This document shows, piece after piece, positions 3,334 through 8,530 of a stretch of DNA of 45,017 nucleotides. The position numbers and the translations under genes are program-made. The notes beneath the pieces are model-generated. The model saw only the letters and a program-made list of their open reading frames with translations, did not search any database and had not been told where the DNA came from. Origin of the DNA: Clostridia bacterium (GTDB taxonomy: Bacteria > Bacillota > Clostridia > Oscillospirales > CAG-272); assembly GCA_017547755.1 (NCBI GenBank), contig JAFYOX010000063.1, positions 1 through 45,017 of the forward strand, given 5' to 3'. Numbering within the stretch: position 1 is the stretch's first letter; the number at the start of each line of letters is the position of its first letter.

Positions 3334-4593
3334 ATGTCATCCTACAGCGAAAGAATCAAGAATTTTGAGAAAATAAGAGCGTATATGCGCGAGTTTTATG
3401 TTTACGGCTTCAAAAGCCGCGACGATTATCAGACAAAAAGTGCTCGTTCCTATGATGACGAACGCCGCCGCCTCGAAAGCTGGCTCGGCGATCATATGAG
3501 TTTTGTTCGCACTCCCGAAGGAAAGACAGTCTTCCTGTCGATCGACAGCCGCACCATCCGGCACAATCCTTTATACAGCGCGTGGAAAACCAGAAGTTTC
3601 ACCGACGGCGATATCACACTGCACTTTCTCCTGTTCGATATTCTCAACGAACCGTCGGTCCGGAAAACCGTGACGGAGATCCTCCGGGAGATCGACGAGA
3701 ACTATCTGGCAGGATTTGAGACGCCCATGATGTTCGACGAATCCACCGTCCGGAAAAAACTCAGGGAATACGCGGACGAAGGGATCATCCTTATGGAAAA
3801 AGAAGGTCGGAAAGTATATTACCGCCGGGCAGCCGATACCGACCTTTCCGGTCTGACCGACGTTCTTCATTATTTCTCGGAAACCGCTCCCTGCGGCGTT
3901 ATCGGATCGTTCATTCTCGACAAAGTAAATACGGATACCGACGCCTTCACGTTCAAGCATCATTACATAACAAGTGCCATCGACAGCGGAGTTCTGGCGG
4001 CATTGTTCACCGCAATGCGGGAAAAACGTGCGGTGGAGATTACGAATCTCAGCCGCCGAAAAGATCAGCCGCGCTGCAACCGCATCGTCCCTCTCCGGAT
4101 ATTCATCAGCGTGCAGAGCGGCAGACAGCATCTTCTTGCGTATTTGCCGGAGTACAATCATTTTCAGTCCTACCGCGTGGATTATCTCTCCAACGTCAGA
4201 CTGAAAGAGCCGACTCCCCGGTTTGACGAGCTGCGCGAAGAGCTTGAGCGGATCCAGAGCAAAATGTGGGGCGTCAGTATTCAGCGGCACAAATGGAACG
4301 AAGAATCCCTGGAACACGTGGAATTCACGATCCATGTCGAGGATGATGAAGATTTTATCGTCCGCCGCCTGGAACGAGAGAAACGCATCGGCACGGTGGA
4401 AAAACTGGACGAGCATACTTACCGTTTTTCTGCGGATGTTTACGATTCGAGCGAACTGATCCCATGGATCAGAACGTTTATCTGCCGGATCGTGCAGATG
4501 GATTTCTCGCACAGGGCCCGCGAGAACCAGTTCAAAGAGGATCTTGAAGCGATGTACCGTATGTACGGGATCGGAACGGAGGAAGGGAAATGA
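3334..4593 (+). CDS. WYL-domain transcriptional regulator
   Basis: This 419-residue protein has a charged N-terminal region with a winged-helix look (MREFYVYGFKSRDDY, YDDERRRLESWL). A second helical segment follows (STVRKKLREYADEGIILMEKEGRKVYYRR, a wing-like end). A C-terminal WYL-type beta module contains LLAYLPEYNHFQSYRVDYLSNVRL. WYL domains are known as ligand- or nucleic-acid-sensing parts of bacterial regulators, including those of stress and defence loci. AAAGGAG precedes the ATG by 8 nt. It overlaps the next WYL gene by 4 nt (ATGA), so the two are translationally coupled and probably work together. It sits immediately upstream of the TROVE/vWA-RtcB genes and is a plausible regulator of them. 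Confidence 0.75.
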   Translation: MSSYSERIKNFEKIRAYMREFYVYGFKSRDDYQTKSARSYDDERRRLESWLGDHMSFVRTPEGKTVFLSIDSRTIRHNPLYSAWKTRSFTDGDITLHFLLFDILNEPSVRKTVTEILREIDENYLAGFETPMMFDESTVRKKLREYADEGIILMEKEGRKVYYRRAADTDLSGLTDVLHYFSETAPCGVIGSFILDKVNTDTDAFTFKHHYITSAIDSGVLAALFTAMREKRAVEITNLSRRKDQPRCNRIVPLRIFISVQSGRQHLLAYLPEYNHFQSYRVDYLSNVRLKEPTPRFDELREELERIQSKMWGVSIQRHKWNEESLEHVEFTIHVEDDEDFIVRRLEREKRIGTVEKLDEHTYRFSADVYDSSELIPWIRTFICRIVQMDFSHRARENQFKEDLEAMYRMYGIGTEEGK

Positions 4594-5501
4594 TATTCAG
4601 CGAACTTTATTCCGCGTATTACAATACCATTGCCGCGATCATAACAGAAATCCTTGAGAGAGAAACCTCCGAAAAGGCACTGCAGAAGATCATTGCCGAG
4701 CGTGCCTTCGGAGAAAGTGCGCTCACGATCCTTCCCACGCTGAAGAGTGAAAAATGGCAGCTGGTGCATCCCGACATGACAACGCCTCTCGGACATATCC
4801 CCACCATGCCGCTGACATTTCTCCAGAAACAATGGCTGAAAGCCGTCTCGCTCGATCCCCGCGTGAAACTGTTCGGCGTCGAATTTCCGGACCTTGACGA
4901 TGTACCCCCGCTTTTTACCCCGGACGATTATTATGTTTACGATAAATACAGCGATGGGGATCCGTTCGAAGACGAAGAATACATCCGGCAGTTCCGGATC
5001 ATTCTGGACGCCATCCGCCGGCAAACACAGATCAAATTCGAAATGGTCAACCGCAAAGGAGCGACCATGTTTGTCCGGTGCCGTCCCGTACGTCTCGAAT
5101 ATTCGGAAAAAGACGATAAATTCCGCATGATCACCGCCGGATGGCGTACGGTTTCGACCGTCAATCTCGCAAAAATCCAATCGTGTGCGCATTATTCCGG
5201 CGACAAACAGGTCTCCGGCGAGGAAAAAAGCGTACAGCATAAAACGATCACCGTAAAACTCATCGACGAGCGGAATGCGCTGGAACGGTTTATGCTTCAT
5301 TTCGCACATTTCGAAAAGCAGGCGGAGAAGCTGGACCGGAAAACCTATCTCGTGAAAATCCGGTATGTTCAGGATGACGAAACGGAAATGGTCATCCGTA
5401 TTCTGTCCTTCGGCCCCATGGCGGAAGTTCTGGAACCGGAATCTTTCCGGAAATTAATCATCGAAAAACTGAAAAAACAGAAAAACTGCGGACTCAAATG
5501 A
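4590..5501 (+). CDS. WYL-domain protein, second of a coupled pair
   Basis: This 303-residue protein shows the same overall plan as its neighbour: an N-terminal helical part, then a beta-rich centre (IKFEMVNRKGATMFVRCRPVRLEYSEKDDKFRMITA) that reads as the WYL core. The C-terminal extension ends VLEPESFRKLIIEKLKK, the usual C-terminal pattern of WYL regulators. No clear N-terminal DNA-binding helix-turn-helix is seen, so it may depend on its partner. The start overlaps the upstream stop. The stop codon lies inside the loop of the terminator at 5486-5519. By position it is a regulator or co-regulator of the RNA repair genes; the effector is unknown. Confidence 0.65.
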   Translation: MIFSELYSAYYNTIAAIITEILERETSEKALQKIIAERAFGESALTILPTLKSEKWQLVHPDMTTPLGHIPTMPLTFLQKQWLKAVSLDPRVKLFGVEFPDLDDVPPLFTPDDYYVYDKYSDGDPFEDEEYIRQFRIILDAIRRQTQIKFEMVNRKGATMFVRCRPVRLEYSEKDDKFRMITAGWRTVSTVNLAKIQSCAHYSGDKQVSGEEKSVQHKTITVKLIDERNALERFMLHFAHFEKQAEKLDRKTYLVKIRYVQDDETEMVIRILSFGPMAEVLEPESFRKLIIEKLKKQKNCGLK

Positions 5502-5519
5502 GAGTTCGCAGCTTTTTTT
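5486..5519 (+). terminator. Rho-independent terminator of the WYL pair
   Basis: CTGCGGACTC (5486-5495) pairs with GAGTTCGCAG (5502-5511), with one G-T pair and a 6-nt loop that contains the stop codon. CTTTTTTTC follows. It separates the WYL transcript from the RNA leader and TROVE/vWA-rtcB transcript. Confidence 0.85.
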
Positions 5520-5521
5520 CC

Positions 5522-5550
5522 GTGAAAAAGGTACAGGATGGTGGTAAAAT
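5522..5550 (+). promoter_or_regulatory. Putative promoter of the Y-RNA-like leader and rtcB operon
   Basis: The -10 element TAAAAT (5545-5550) is clear. The -35 element (GTGAAA at 17 bp) is weak, as expected for an activator-dependent promoter. Predicted start is near 5557, next to the first bulged hairpin. The WYL proteins encoded just upstream are candidate activators (inference). Confidence 0.5.
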
Positions 5551-5553
5551 GTA

Positions 5554-5644
5554 ATCACGAAAGGCGCAGACAGCAAATATACAAAAACAGATTTCAGGTA
5601 TCTGATATGCAGCTCTCATAGCATCAAAGCATATGCGCCTTGAT
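5554..5644 (+). ncRNA. Y-RNA-like bulged hairpin 1 (candidate Ro/TROVE partner RNA)
   Basis: ATCA (5554-5557) pairs with TGAT (5641-5644) and AGGCGCA (5562-5568) with TGCGCCT (5634-5640). This leaves the 4-nt bulge CGAA on the 5' strand, opposite CUUGA on the 3' strand. In known Y RNAs the Ro60-binding site is a terminal helix with a CGA-type bulge on the 5' strand and UUGA opposite. The interior holds a 5-bp stem with a 7-nt loop starting TTC (CAGAT 5588-5592, ATCTG 5600-5604), which resembles a tRNA T-arm only in part. It extends into ATAT/ATAT and GC/GC pairs (5573-5610). The predicted transcription start lies within the outer stem, so the exact 5' end is unsure. Confidence 0.5.
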
Positions 5645-5718
5645 AAAAGACTCGTACAGCAAAGTTTATTACTGATAAATTATCCCTCCAAGATTTTTTA
5701 CAGAAACTATCGAGTCTT
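5645..5718 (+). other. Middle stem of the structured leader
   Basis: AAGACTCG (5647-5654) is exactly complementary to CGAGTCTT (5711-5718). The A/T-rich interior contains a small hairpin (TTTAT 5665-5669 with ATAAA 5675-5679). The stem can stand alone between the two Y-like hairpins. It can also stack on an alternative long-range helix between 5634-5641 and 5726-5733. There is no T-tract terminator, so transcription may run on into the coding region. Confidence 0.5.
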
Positions 5719-5778
5719 GTAACCGAAGGCGCACCGGACTGTATTTCTTCCAAAGATGTACCGTACGGTGCGCCTTAC
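5719..5778 (+). ncRNA. Y-RNA-like bulged hairpin 2 in the leader of the TROVE gene
   Basis: GTAA (5719-5722) pairs with TTAC (5775-5778) and GGCGCACCG (5728-5736) with CGGTGCGCC (5766-5774), leaving the bulge CCGAA. The heptamer CCGAAGG matches the bulge region of human Y1 RNA as I remember it. Above an internal loop, 5742-5749 pairs with 5753-5760, with one mismatch and one G-T pair. The hairpin ends 24 nt before the ribosome binding site of the TROVE/vWA gene. It is therefore in that gene's 5' leader unless it is processed out, a position suited to feedback by the encoded protein. Confidence 0.5.
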
Positions 5779-5816
5779 AATCAGAATCACAAAACAAACA
5801 AAAAGGAGTGAGTTTC

Positions 5817-7277
5817 ATGTTGAATTATCTAAAGCAGGAAGCAAACAAAACCCTTACAGCAAACGGCGCAGCTGCCTACACTACAACCGGATCTGCCTGC
5901 CTCGATTTGTTCGCAGTCATCGGCGCCCTCCGTCACCGGAGCGACCAAGAGATCATAGACCACTTTCTCCGGGCATATCGTGAAAACAAAGATATCGCCA
6001 TGAAACTTCTGTTTTACGCACGCGATATCCGCGGCGGTCTCGGCGAACGCCGTGTATTCAAGGTGATCCTTGCATGGCTTGCGGACAACGATCCTGCCGC
6101 CGTATGCAAAAACCTTAAGTACATCGCCGAATACGGCCGATACGACGATTTTCTCTGTCTTATGGACACTGCCTGCGAAAAGAGCATGATGGATGTGCTC
6201 AAAACACGGTTCCGTGCGGACAGGGAAGCCCTCAGAACCGGCGGCGACGTATCGCTTCTTGCGAAGTGGCTTCCTTCGGTGAATGCCTCCAATGCAGTCA
6301 CCGTATCGCACGCAAAGAAGATCGCCAGACATTTCGGTCTCCGTGACGCGGATTACCGGAAGGCGCTTGCCGAACTTCGCGAACATCTCCGTATCATCGA
6401 GAATCATCTCCGCGAGAAGGATTATTCGTTTGATTACAGCAAACAGCCGTCCAAGGCAATGTACAAATACCGCAGTGCATTTTACAGAAACGACCCAATC
6501 AACTACCTTGAATTTCTCGGCAATGTCTCATCCGGCATAACCACTCTCCATGCAGATACCCTCATGCCTTATGAGATCATTTCGCCTATTCTTAAAAATT
6601 CCCGGATGGCAGATTACGAGAAAAAGACATTGAACACCACCTGGCTCTCCCTCGAGAATTTCGGTACTGACGAGAATGCTCTTGCAGTCATTGACGGCTC
6701 CGCTTCCATGTATTACTGGGGCAAACCTGTTCCCGCAGCAGTTGCTCTTTCTCTCGGTATTTACTTTGCGGAAAGAAATACCGGCAGATTCAAAAACCAT
6801 TTCATTACTTTCTCCGAAAATCCCCGCCTCGTGGAGATCAAGGGTTCCGATATTTATGAAAAAGTGAAATACTGCACTGACTACAACGAGGTAGCAAATA
6901 CAAATATCCAGAAAGTCTTTGAATTGATCCTTGATACTGCAATAAAATATTCCGTTCCCAGAAAAGAAATGCCGTCCAGACTTTACATTATTTCCGATAT
7001 GGAATTTGACTGCTGTGCAAAGAACTCTTCTCGCACCAATTTCGAATATGCAAAAAAGCTCTTCCGTAATGCGGGCTACAAACTTCCCGAGATCGTTTTC
7101 TGGAATGTCAACAGCTCCGGCAGACAGCAGCCCGTAACAAAAAACGAACAGGGCGTCGTTCTTGTGTCCGGCTGTACCCCCCGGCTTTTTTCCATGGTGG
7201 CAGGCGGTAAGACAGCTCCCTACGCCTTTATGCTTGAGGTCGTGGGCAGCAAGCGATACGAAAAAATCACCGCATAA
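5817..7277 (+). CDS. TROVE/vWA Ro60-like protein (DUF2828 type)
   Basis: This 486-residue protein begins with a helical repeat-rich region carrying typical DUF2828 signatures: NGAAAYTTTGSACLDLFAVIG, FYARDIRGGLGERRVF and YIAEYGRYDDFLCL. A von Willebrand A-like domain follows, with a MIDAS-like DGSAS near residue 293 and SRLYIISDMEFD further on. TROVE-vWA proteins such as Ro60 and bacterial Rsr form rings that bind misfolded RNAs and Y RNAs. DUF2828 is a divergent relative; its RNA partners are, to my knowledge, not established. I chose ATG 5817 because AAAGGAG (5802-5808) is 8 nt upstream; a GTG at 5808 overlaps that site. Its leader carries two Y-like hairpins and rtcB follows in the same operon, which supports a role in RNA repair or quality control. 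Confidence 0.75.
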   Translation: MLNYLKQEANKTLTANGAAAYTTTGSACLDLFAVIGALRHRSDQEIIDHFLRAYRENKDIAMKLLFYARDIRGGLGERRVFKVILAWLADNDPAAVCKNLKYIAEYGRYDDFLCLMDTACEKSMMDVLKTRFRADREALRTGGDVSLLAKWLPSVNASNAVTVSHAKKIARHFGLRDADYRKALAELREHLRIIENHLREKDYSFDYSKQPSKAMYKYRSAFYRNDPINYLEFLGNVSSGITTLHADTLMPYEIISPILKNSRMADYEKKTLNTTWLSLENFGTDENALAVIDGSASMYYWGKPVPAAVALSLGIYFAERNTGRFKNHFITFSENPRLVEIKGSDIYEKVKYCTDYNEVANTNIQKVFELILDTAIKYSVPRKEMPSRLYIISDMEFDCCAKNSSRTNFEYAKKLFRNAGYKLPEIVFWNVNSSGRQQPVTKNEQGVVLVSGCTPRLFSMVAGGKTAPYAFMLEVVGSKRYEKITA

Positions 7278-7321: not shown

Positions 7322-8530
7322 ATGACAGAAATCACCGGCAGATACAATACCGCCCGATGCTTTGCCGCCACGATCGAAGACGGTGCGCGCGAACAGATCC
7401 GCACCATCTGCGATACCGAGGCGTTTGCATCTTCGAAAATAAGAATCATGCCCGACGTTCATGCGGGCAAGGGCTGTACCATCGGTACGACCATGACGAT
7501 CACCGATAAAATCGTTCCTTCCATGGTAGGCGTCGATATCGGCTGCGGTATGTATACCGTATATCTCGGCAAAATTGATATCGATTTCGAAAAAATGGAC
7601 GAAGCAGCCCATGGCATCCCCAGCGGCAGAAACGTCTGGGAAGGCCGTCAGGAACGCTTTGATCTCACTCAGCTCCGCTGTTACCGGAATCTCAGAGATT
7701 CGAGAAGACTCGAACGATCCCTCGGCACCCTCGGCGGCGGCAATCATTTCATCGAGATCGACACGGACGACGAAGGCGGCAAATACCTTGTAATCCACTC
7801 GGGCAGCCGCAATCTCGGCACACAGGTCGCAGAATATTATCAGCAGATCGCTGTCGACCTCGGTTCAGGCAAGGAGAGGTATTTCATAGAGCGTGATGAA
7901 CTCATCCGCACGTACAAGGAGCAGGGCAGACGATCCGAGATCCAGAATGCCCTCAAAGAGCTTGTAAAGAAGTACGAAGAGAAAGAACCCGCGCTTCCCC
8001 GTGATCTCTGTTACCTTTACGGTTCCTATATGGATGATTATCTCCATGACGTGGATATCTGTCAGAAATTCGCTGAAAGAAACCGCATGAAAATGGCGGA
8101 GATCATCCTCGATCACTGCGGCTGGACCGCAGCCGAAACCTTCCAGACAATCCACAACTACATCGATGTAAACGAAATGATCCTCCGCAAAGGCGCGGTA
8201 TCCGCAAAAACGGATGAAAAACTTCTCATTCCCATCAATATGCGCGACGGTTCGCTCATCTGCCGAGGCAGAGGCAGCGAAGACTGGAATTTTTCCGCAC
8301 CGCATGGTGCCGGCCGTCTGATGTCCCGTTCCGCCGCATTCGAACGTCTCACCATGGCGGAATACCAGAAGGAAATGGCAGGCATTTATTCCACCTGCGT
8401 TACTCCCGATACGCTCGATGAGTCGCCCATGGCGTATAAAAGCATGGATGAGATCGTCGAACATATCGGCCCGACCGCCGAAATCCTCTGCAGGATCCGC
8501 CCTCTCTATAACTTCAAGGCGGCGGAATAA
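7322..8530 (+). CDS. rtcB: RNA-splicing ligase RtcB family protein
   Basis: RtcB joins RNA 2',3'-cyclic phosphate or 3'-phosphate ends to 5'-OH ends with Mn2+ and GTP. The 402 residues carry the family motifs in order: DVHAGKGCTIG (about 45-55), GVDIGCG with metal-binding Asp72 and Cys75, GGGNHFIEI (138-146), HSGSRNLG (159-166) and APHGAGR with His328 at the position of the guanylylated histidine. At 402 residues it is near the length of E. coli RtcB. It is second gene after the TROVE/vWA protein, in the same direction, 44 bp apart. Linkage of RtcB with Ro60-type proteins is known from proteobacterial rsr-rtcBA operons. Here no rtcA and no RtcR activator are present; WYL proteins occupy the regulator position. 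Confidence 0.93.
   Translation: MTEITGRYNTARCFAATIEDGAREQIRTICDTEAFASSKIRIMPDVHAGKGCTIGTTMTITDKIVPSMVGVDIGCGMYTVYLGKIDIDFEKMDEAAHGIPSGRNVWEGRQERFDLTQLRCYRNLRDSRRLERSLGTLGGGNHFIEIDTDDEGGKYLVIHSGSRNLGTQVAEYYQQIAVDLGSGKERYFIERDELIRTYKEQGRRSEIQNALKELVKKYEEKEPALPRDLCYLYGSYMDDYLHDVDICQKFAERNRMKMAEIILDHCGWTAAETFQTIHNYIDVNEMILRKGAVSAKTDEKLLIPINMRDGSLICRGRGSEDWNFSAPHGAGRLMSRSAAFERLTMAEYQKEMAGIYSTCVTPDTLDESPMAYKSMDEIVEHIGPTAEILCRIRPLYNFKAAE

What the first reader, a model, noticed from the sequence alone, without database searches (positions are those of the whole stretch)
5554..5778. Two Y-RNA-like bulged hairpins upstream of a TROVE/vWA gene and rtcB
Seen: two hairpins (5554-5644, 5719-5778) with the same plan, a 4-bp basal helix, a 4-5 nt bulge ending CGAA on the 5' strand, then a GC-rich helix starting GGCGC. 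UUGA stands opposite in the first; the second has CCGAAGG. Known: Ro60 and bacterial Rsr bind Y RNAs at a terminal helix with a CGA-type bulge. Inference: these are partner RNAs of the DUF2828-type protein. That would extend the Ro/Y-RNA principle to this divergent family.
Basis: partly seen in the sequence, partly recalled or inferred. Interest (0 to 1): 0.88.

Follow-up and report, generated by a model that had tools for sequence, protein, structure and literature searches.

The report
Arrays of tRNA-mimicking Y-RNA-like hairpins
In front of a Ro-like RNA-binding gene and an RNA-ligase gene lies a short array of small RNA hairpins that share a common handle, relatives of which carry look-alikes of tRNA parts in gut bacteria and phages.

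Summary
The two hairpins exist, but the conserved feature is not the one named. Leaders of DUF2828-type genes carry tandem RNA modules: an 8-bp covarying helix, 2 nt, ACAGCAA on the inner 5' side, variable cargo, and a G after the 3' arm. A covariance model built without the window finds only the first two in its genome; in relatives it hits 10 of 10 genomes with the gene and 0 of 14 without. The CGAA bulge and basal helix are not conserved; hairpin 1's basal strand lies at or before the predicted transcript start. A subset of cargos are clear tRNA mimics: T-arms in 58 of 316 (0.25 expected), natural anticodon loops in 44 of 316 (1.5 expected). Phage relatives carry the same handle, some with the capped, permuted tRNA shape of Rfam YrlA. 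So partner RNAs for a Ro-like protein are well supported; binding is untested. Best mechanism: Ro-type RNPs presenting tRNA mimics, perhaps decoys for tRNA-cutting nucleases, beside RtcB. New variant of a known kind.

The parts
5505..5521 (+). Conserved promoter-side element TTCGCAGCTTTTTTTCC (consensus TTCGCARCTTTTTTTCC), possible activator/operator site; overlaps the terminator-like hairpin after the upstream WYL gene
   Evidence: Present with up to 2 mismatches in 67 of 80 relatives, 1 of 80 on the reverse strand; starts 52-60 bp before the next module in 41 of the 66 loci where a module follows (mode 56; here 56)
5522..5550 (+). Promoter-like GTGAAA-17-TAAAAT with TG; start predicted at about 5556-5559
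   Evidence: 9 of 12 matches; by itself no more than the 0.8 expected by chance; same layout in the relatives
5561..5642 (+). Module 1: arm AAGGCGC(A) 5561-5568, ACAGCAA 5570-5576, cargo with a 5-bp/7-nt hairpin (loop TTCAGGT 5593-5599), 3' arm (T)GCGCCTT 5634-5641, G 5642
   Evidence: R1 hit 5558-5645, 41.6 bits, E 9e-8 in the window, 6.1e-6 in the genome; hairpin; its loop was not among the tRNA loops
5647..5719 (+).
   Evidence: R1 hit 5644-5722, 40.7 bits, E 1e-5 in the genome; fold z -3.75
5726..5776 (+).
   Evidence: fold z -5.70; loop, 29 natural copies; not hit by R1
5817..7277 (+). DUF2828 / DUF7788 (vWA-like) protein, Ro/TROVE-like; GTG alternative start at 5808
   Evidence: Pfam; PHROG 850 'RNA-binding protein'; hhalign to TROVE proteins; AF2 model helical 27-277, then alpha/beta 288-476
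7322..8530 (+). rtcB, RNA ligase
   Evidence: Pfam PF01139 E 2.1e-57; RtcB within the fetched stretch in 54 of 80 relatives
3334..5501 (+). Two WYL-type regulators (WYL and WCX domains), possible regulators of the operon
   Evidence: Pfam, PADLOC WYL; a homologue in 63 of 80 relatives

Best explanation
The leader of an RNA-repair operon encodes a tandem array of Y-RNA-like small RNAs. Each has a constant handle (8-bp helix, inner 5' ACAGCAA, G after the 3' arm) and a variable cargo that, in a clear subset of relatives, copies parts of tRNAs. SHOWN by sequence: the array, the covarying handle, its linkage to the DUF2828 gene, and the tRNA mimicry of a subset of cargos. INFERRED: the DUF2828-vWA protein is a Ro-type protein that binds the handle and so displays the mimics; WYL regulators control the operon; the mimics engage proteins that act on tRNAs, most likely as decoys for anticodon nucleases (alternatively as tethers for tRNA-processing or degrading enzymes, as YrlA is for PNPase), while RtcB reseals cut tRNAs.
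For: Array and handle: 390 modules in 80 named genome loci against 48 on the reverse strand and 54 in a shuffle; 80 of 80 loci with one or more. Pairing tested on anchors picked without it: 226 of 248 exact 5' anchors have a Watson-Crick partner, 48.2 on average (max 62) when arms are re-dealt. A 56-row alignment: 7 of 8 pairs with double changes, covariation 0.522 against 0.235 shuffled and at most 0.145 slid. Linkage: 10 of 10 genomes with the gene and 0 of 14 without; the only two hits in the window's genome are in the window; virus contigs picked by one RNA pattern hold the gene inside 45 of 80 stretches, and in 24 of 34 whole records examined next, one of them already counted. Mimicry: T-arm in 58 of 316 cargos, 0.25 in shuffles, 0 reverse-complemented; natural anticodon loops in 44 of 316, shuffles 1.5, and in 41 of 179 viral cargos, shuffles 0.8; 36 cargos with D-, anticodon- and T-arm-like parts show 18 triplets. 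Protein: hhalign to TROVE proteins across DxSGSM, E 9.5e-5. YrlA match of a mycobacteriophage UPIE module.
Against: No binding, expression or function was tested. The TROVE similarity is weak (Prob 58.6, 114 columns), Pfam does not call TROVE at E 0.1, and the fold comparison could not be run. Four TROVE loci in Bacillota showed no AAG-type handle within their short flanks. Most cargos (258 of 316) lack a canonical T-arm and 272 of 316 lack a natural anticodon loop. A looser sign, U33 plus R37 in 7-nt loops, is nearly as common in reverse complements (102 of 259 against 141 of 313), so I do not use it. Module 1's own loop TTCAGGT is not among natural loops, and no T-arm loop was found in the window's modules. 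RtcB was not found in 26 of 80 fetched stretches, some truncated. In Salmonella the tRNA-like YrlA was not cut by the nuclease (PMC7790460, passages). KVP40 has the protein but no module by my finder. Four virus records of 22 to 192 kb have the RNA pattern but no detected gene.
Confidence: 0.72

Rival explanations
1. The array is a cis-acting leader: the modules stay in the mRNA and control expression of the DUF2828-rtcB operon, for example by being cut by tRNA-attacking nucleases or by binding the protein itself (autoregulation).
For: In genome loci 222 of 226 paired anchors lie upstream of the gene, 210 of them within 1.5 kb; a conserved promoter element precedes the modules in 67 of 80; a ribosome-binding-site-like AGGAG precedes the gene in the window.
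Against: Modules lie downstream of the gene in Felix O1 and UPIE, before rtcB rather than directly before DUF2828 in L024 and L030 (rtcB is upstream in 9 of 80 relatives), and are spread over several kb in phage contigs. Copy number and cargo vary widely, unlike a leader switch.
Confidence: 0.2
2. Canonical Y RNAs recognised through a CGA-type bulge next to a basal helix.
For: CGAA letters before both reader hairpins; Y-RNA-like function is plausible.
Against: Basal helix at chance level (40 of 319 against 40.4) and CGA in 17 of 319; predicted start inside the basal strand; no Rfam Y RNA or YrlA match in 5400-5900 at E up to 10.
Confidence: 0.03
3. Decaying or mobile tRNA genes: the cargos are remnants of tRNA genes that happen to be flanked by repeats.
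For: A real tRNA gene lies between modules in L002 and phage modules of AG20, Felix O1 and EFDG1 sit in or beside tRNA clusters.
Against: Handles covary and keep ACAGCAA, similar tRNA-like bodies recur with different triplets in the anticodon position, and the linkage to DUF2828 is close.
Confidence: 0.05

Closest known systems
YrlA, bacterial Y RNA of Rsr (Ro60-related) RNPs, Rfam RF02553
   Same: A terminal stem that tethers a Ro-type protein plus a tRNA-like domain, in some bacteria in an rtcB operon (PMC8394870 and PMC7790460, passages). A permuted, capped-acceptor cargo of a phage module aligns to it (39.8 bits).
   Different: That match is below the gathering score of 69; no match in the window and none at gathering score in 20 relatives or 6 phage loci. 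Handle motif ACAGCAA, arrays of several modules, partner DUF2828 instead of TROVE, and in genome loci cargos of canonical order (56 of 58 T-arm cargos), many with an anticodon-arm-like hairpin (36 of 58); YrlA's domain is described as D, T and acceptor arms.
Vertebrate Y RNAs with Ro60
   Same: Small hairpin RNAs with a conserved terminal helix and variable far end; partner with a helical-repeat plus vWA protein (recalled).
   Different: No Rfam match; the bulge motif is not conserved here.
Phage 'RNA-binding protein' family PHROG 850, called Ro-like in mycobacteriophages
   Same: Window protein matches it over residues 2-482, E 3.9e-123; 681 phage records, some of them duplicates, have a homologue.
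   Different: Named by similarity; in the passages I saw an RNA partner is only suggested (PMC12282133), and the abundant RNAs named there do not carry the handle.
rsr-yrlBA-rtcBA RNA-repair operon of Salmonella
   Same: Ro-type protein, tRNA-like small RNA and RtcB in one operon (PMC7790460, passages).
   Different: There controlled by RtcR and with rtcA; here WYL genes nearby (63 of 80 relatives), a different protein family and a multi-module array.

Membership tests
YrlA (RF02553) | Score at or above the Rfam gathering cut-off | tested here: not met
   No match in the window; UPIE module 39.8 bits against 69; none in 20 relatives or 6 phage loci
YrlA (RF02553) | Permuted tRNA-like domain: T arm, capped acceptor hairpin, D arm | tested here: not met
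   No T-arm loop among the window modules' hairpins. Relatives: 1 of 58 genome T-arm cargos and 7 of 27 viral T-arm cargos permuted, so met in some phage modules only
Y RNA of Ro60 | Conserved bulge beside a basal helix | tested here: not met
   40 of 319 modules allow a basal helix, control 40.4; CGA in 17 of 319
Y RNA, functional sense | Bound by a Ro-type protein | not testable with these tools
   Only genetic linkage: 10 of 10 against 0 of 14 genomes
Ro/TROVE protein (PF05731) | Pfam TROVE match | tested here: not met
   Only DUF7788 and DUF2828 at E up to 0.1
Ro/TROVE protein (PF05731) | Distant homology to TROVE proteins, MIDAS DxSxS in a vWA domain | tested here: inconclusive
   hhalign Prob 58.6, E 9.5e-5 over 114 columns including DGSxSM, against three TROVE proteins
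Ro/TROVE protein (PF05731) | Ring of helical repeats closed by a vWA domain | tested here: inconclusive
   AF2 model has helices 27-277 then an alpha/beta domain 288-476, mean pLDDT 85.2; comparison with PDB could not be run
Functional tRNA genes | Recognisable tRNA gene in the window modules | tested here: not met
   ARAGORN finds none in the window; no Rfam tRNA match

The most novel reading that the evidence does not exclude
A Ro-like protein carries a swappable panel of anticodon-arm mimics: module arrays act as an evolving decoy repertoire, one module per threatened tRNA, against anticodon nucleases in the conflict between bacteria and phages, with RtcB or phage RNA ligase repairing what is cut. 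The handle stays fixed while cargo and anticodon are exchanged.
Probability: 0.3. Interest if true: 0.92.

Novelty: new variant of a known kind. Interest (0 to 1): 0.8.

Why it matters
It gives a protein family with homologues in 681 phage records and many gut bacteria a likely RNA partner with a defined binding-site candidate that can be tested at once. It extends the Ro/Y RNA idea from one or two RNAs to arrays, and it adds anticodon-arm look-alikes to the mimicry, which bears on an open question: what Y RNAs do beside RtcB.

Tried and rejected
Rfam Y RNA/YrlA on the window: nothing. The CGA bulge and basal helix: tested and dropped. An inverted repeat CCGTGA...TCACG around the promoter was considered as an operator; by eye the right half varies among loci, and only TTCGCARCTTTTTTTCC with its spacing was counted. 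I hoped that the very abundant RNAs of Listeria phage CKA15 (PMC12282133) were these modules; they are not: ORFs 059-061 lie 1.2-1.5 kb upstream of the gene and I see no handle there, while three ACAGCAA modules sit directly before the gene. TROVE: 0 of 40 near relatives, 4 of 299 Bacillota genomes with partial matches; their loci gave five chance-like finder matches, none with an AAG arm. PADLOC: WYL and weak CRISPR-associated regulator matches only. PDB by sequence profile: nothing below E 0.2. A first, loose finder gave a high background and was replaced. In one search module 2 was not reported; the genome search found it.

Limits of the counts. A2 rows were picked with fixed anchor letters and pairing at four of eight pairs, so 'percent paired' is conditioned; pair 11-91 was free and pairs in 39 of 56 rows with 23 double changes. 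Cargo counts drop handles outside AAG/AAA/GAG/TAG/ACG/GAA, more than two G-U pairs, cargos over 150 nt and duplicates: 316 of 390 and 179 of 346 modules kept. A first natural-loop count (53 of 316 and 42 of 179) used a loop set that held loops from tRNA-like modules, such as TTTCGGG; I recounted without tRNAs overlapping any possible module: 44 of 316 and 41 of 179. The 36 cargos were picked by a D-like motif and a T-arm, so their conserved body is partly a matter of selection, and the anticodon-arm rule there is loose (4 of 5 pairs, no U33 needed). Loci of the genome searches overlap in part (for example L002 and L042).

Full report
WHAT IS THERE. The window holds, in one direction, two WYL-type regulators (3334-5501), a leader of about 300 nt, a DUF2828/DUF7788 gene (5817-7277) and rtcB (7322-8530). 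The protein matches PHROG 850 'RNA-binding protein' over residues 2-482. Rfam gives nothing in the window at gathering scores, and no Y RNA or YrlA in 5400-5900 at E up to 10; ARAGORN finds no tRNA.

CHECK OF THE OBSERVATION. Both hairpins fold, with a main helix starting GGCGC.

RELATIVES. Their leaders showed a repeated plan: AAG + variable letters + C, two letters, ACAGCAA, cargo, complementary arm ending CTT, then G.

THE HANDLE IS REAL. A strict finder gives 390 modules in the 80 genome loci, against 48 on the reverse strand and 54 in a Markov shuffle, with at least one in 80 of 80 and at least two in 79 of 80; the 80 virus loci give 346 against 51 and 73, with at least one in 78 of 80. 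Because that finder requires pairing, I also tested pairing on anchors chosen by the 5' letters alone: 226 of 248 have a Watson-Crick partner before a CTTG-like end, against 48.2 (max 62) when arms are re-dealt; in virus loci 121 of 165 against 15.2 (max 27). In a 56-row alignment without the window, 7 of 8 pairs show double changes, covariation is 0.522 against 0.235 in shuffles, and sliding the partner destroys it; the 96.2% of cells paired is partly conditioned by how rows were picked.

THE WINDOW'S MODULES. A covariance model from that alignment hits 5558-5645 at 41.6 bits. In the genome of the window its only two matches at E up to 1 are 5558-5645 and 5644-5722, with 150 of 307 candidates scored. 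It shows the loop CTTCCAA, identical to a tRNA-Gly(UCC) anticodon loop; module 1 shows a 5-bp/7-nt hairpin with loop TTCAGGT, which is not among the natural loops I collected. These are single cases seen after the fact, so tRNA mimicry is shown for relatives rather than for the window itself.

LINKAGE. The same model hits 10 of 10 related genomes with the gene and 0 of 14 without; all 31 listed matches lie on the gene's contig within about 2 kb of it (gene places). Three of the ten genomes gave a row to the model. In the other direction, one handle pattern searched in the virus contigs returned 81 stretches, 80 loci. The gene lies inside 45 of 80 stretches. Of 34 whole records examined next, one already counted, 24 hold it; the ten that do not include six fragments under 10 kb and four of 22 to 192 kb. 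Several of these phage contigs have modules spread over kilobases.

PROMOTER. TTCGCARCTTTTTTTCC (up to two mismatches) occurs in 67 of 80 genome loci, 1 of 80 on the other strand; in 41 of the 66 with a module after it the distance is 52-60 bp, including a Synergistaceae and a Gastranaerophilales locus. In the window it starts at 5505, 56 bp before module 1. Across 319 modules a 4-bp basal helix is no commoner than chance (40 against 40.4), and CGA precedes the helix in 17.

CARGO. Of 316 distinct genome cargos, 58 have a perfect 5-bp T-arm with the TTCRANY loop, against 0.25 in shuffles and 0 in reverse complements; virus cargos 18 of 179, against 0.15 and 1. Hairpins closing one of 47 natural anticodon loops, taken from ARAGORN tRNAs of the fetched loci that do not overlap a possible module, occur in 44 of 316 genome cargos (shuffles 1.5, max 4; reverse complements 3) and 41 of 179 virus cargos (0.8, max 3; 2). 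A looser statistic, U33 with R37 in 7-nt loops, is nearly as common in reverse complements and is not used. Thirty-six cargos combine D-like, anticodon-arm-like and T arms and show 18 triplets in the anticodon position; they were picked by the D motif and T-arm, so only part of the contrast is evidence. Rfam tRNA matches fall inside modules of L002, L003, L006 and L015. In genome cargos the order is that of a tRNA (56 of 58 end with the T-arm near the 3' arm), so the handle stands where the acceptor stem would; in viruses 7 of 27 T-arm cargos are permuted, with T-arm and then a capped hairpin. Such a module in mycobacteriophage UPIE scores 39.8 bits (E 1.5e-7, cut-off 69) against Rfam YrlA. 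Most cargos show none of these marks.

NAMED PHAGES. I looked at eight regions: modules lie near the gene in Felix O1 (4), UPIE (3), Campylobacter phage NCTC12673 (2, one further chance-like match left out), EFDG1 (3), Bacillus phage PJN02 (5), a Staphylococcus phage (3) and a faecal contig (2); none was found in KVP40. Listeria phage AG20 has three directly before the gene by the finder, with model E-values 0.00032, 0.02 and 0.62, and the same letters stand in CKA15 (read by eye). In CKA15 the protein was detected in virions, and very abundant transcripts annotated as small ORFs 059-061, thought by the authors to be non-coding, lie nearby; they suggested Y RNAs (PMC12282133, passages and section 8). 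Those transcripts are a different region without the handle. In LeBron, a cluster L1 mycobacteriophage, a Ro-like protein is cytotoxic when overproduced (PMC13148394, passages); I did not check that it is the same family. A jumbo Vibrio phage paper also reports a Ro60-related protein and mentions YrlA in phages (PMC7765460, passages).

PROTEIN. AF2 gives a helical part and an alpha/beta vWA-like part (pLDDT 85.2, pTM 0.77). Profile comparison with three TROVE proteins from Bacillota aligns 114 columns across the junction and DxSGSM (Prob 58.6, E 9.5e-5). Pfam does not call TROVE. The fold search stayed unavailable.

MECHANISM. Shown: array, handle, linkage, and mimicry in a subset. Inferred from the Ro/Rsr precedent (YrlA's stem binds Rsr and its tRNA-like domain binds PNPase, PMC8394870, passages): the protein binds the handle and displays the cargo. 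Inferred more weakly: cargos are decoys for tRNA-attacking nucleases. The Salmonella study raised the same idea for YrlA, while noting that YrlA was not cut (PMC7790460, passages). Different anticodon triplets on similar bodies are what a decoy panel would show, and RtcB, or the RNA ligase near the gene in AG20, fits repair. A cis-acting leader remains possible.

NOVELTY. Text searches for DUF2828, YrlA/Rsr/Y RNA, RtcB/TROVE/tRNA-like, RNA repair with TROVE, anticodon nuclease with decoys, mycobacteriophage Ro, tRNA mimics in phages, and YrlA with anticodon showed no description of such arrays or of the ACAGCAA handle in the listings and passages I saw; several listings were cut short of all matching papers. 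The library lacks two main Y RNA papers that I asked for, so this is not proof; a passage says that Y RNAs had been found in mycobacteriophages. I therefore class it as a new variant of a known kind.

Noticed in passing
L290:2840-3430 (Listeria phage cka15, OR088597.1): The very abundant transcripts of this phage (ORFs 059-061) lie here without the ACAGCAA handle: apparently a separate phage RNA of unknown kind.
   Followed up: partly
window 5505-5521 and 67 of 80 relatives: TTCGCARCTTTTTTTCC is kept also in loci where the left arm of the terminator hairpin seems missing (for example L042); looks like a regulator or activator site rather than only a terminator.
   Followed up: partly
L002:1296-1371: A tRNA-Phe gene with encoded CCA lies between two modules.
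   Followed up: no
L148:4608, L194:4575 and 4810, L291:6376-6500, L292:5438-5559: Circularly permuted tRNA-like cargos with the acceptor stem closed by a short loop, so they probably could not be charged with an amino acid.
   Followed up: partly
L013 and L014 (genome G139): One genome has two DUF2828 genes, 42% and 40% identical to the window protein.
   Followed up: no
L293 (Vibrio phage KVP40): DUF2828 homologue with exact ACAGCAA words nearby but no full handle by my finder; may have a diverged module.
   Followed up: no
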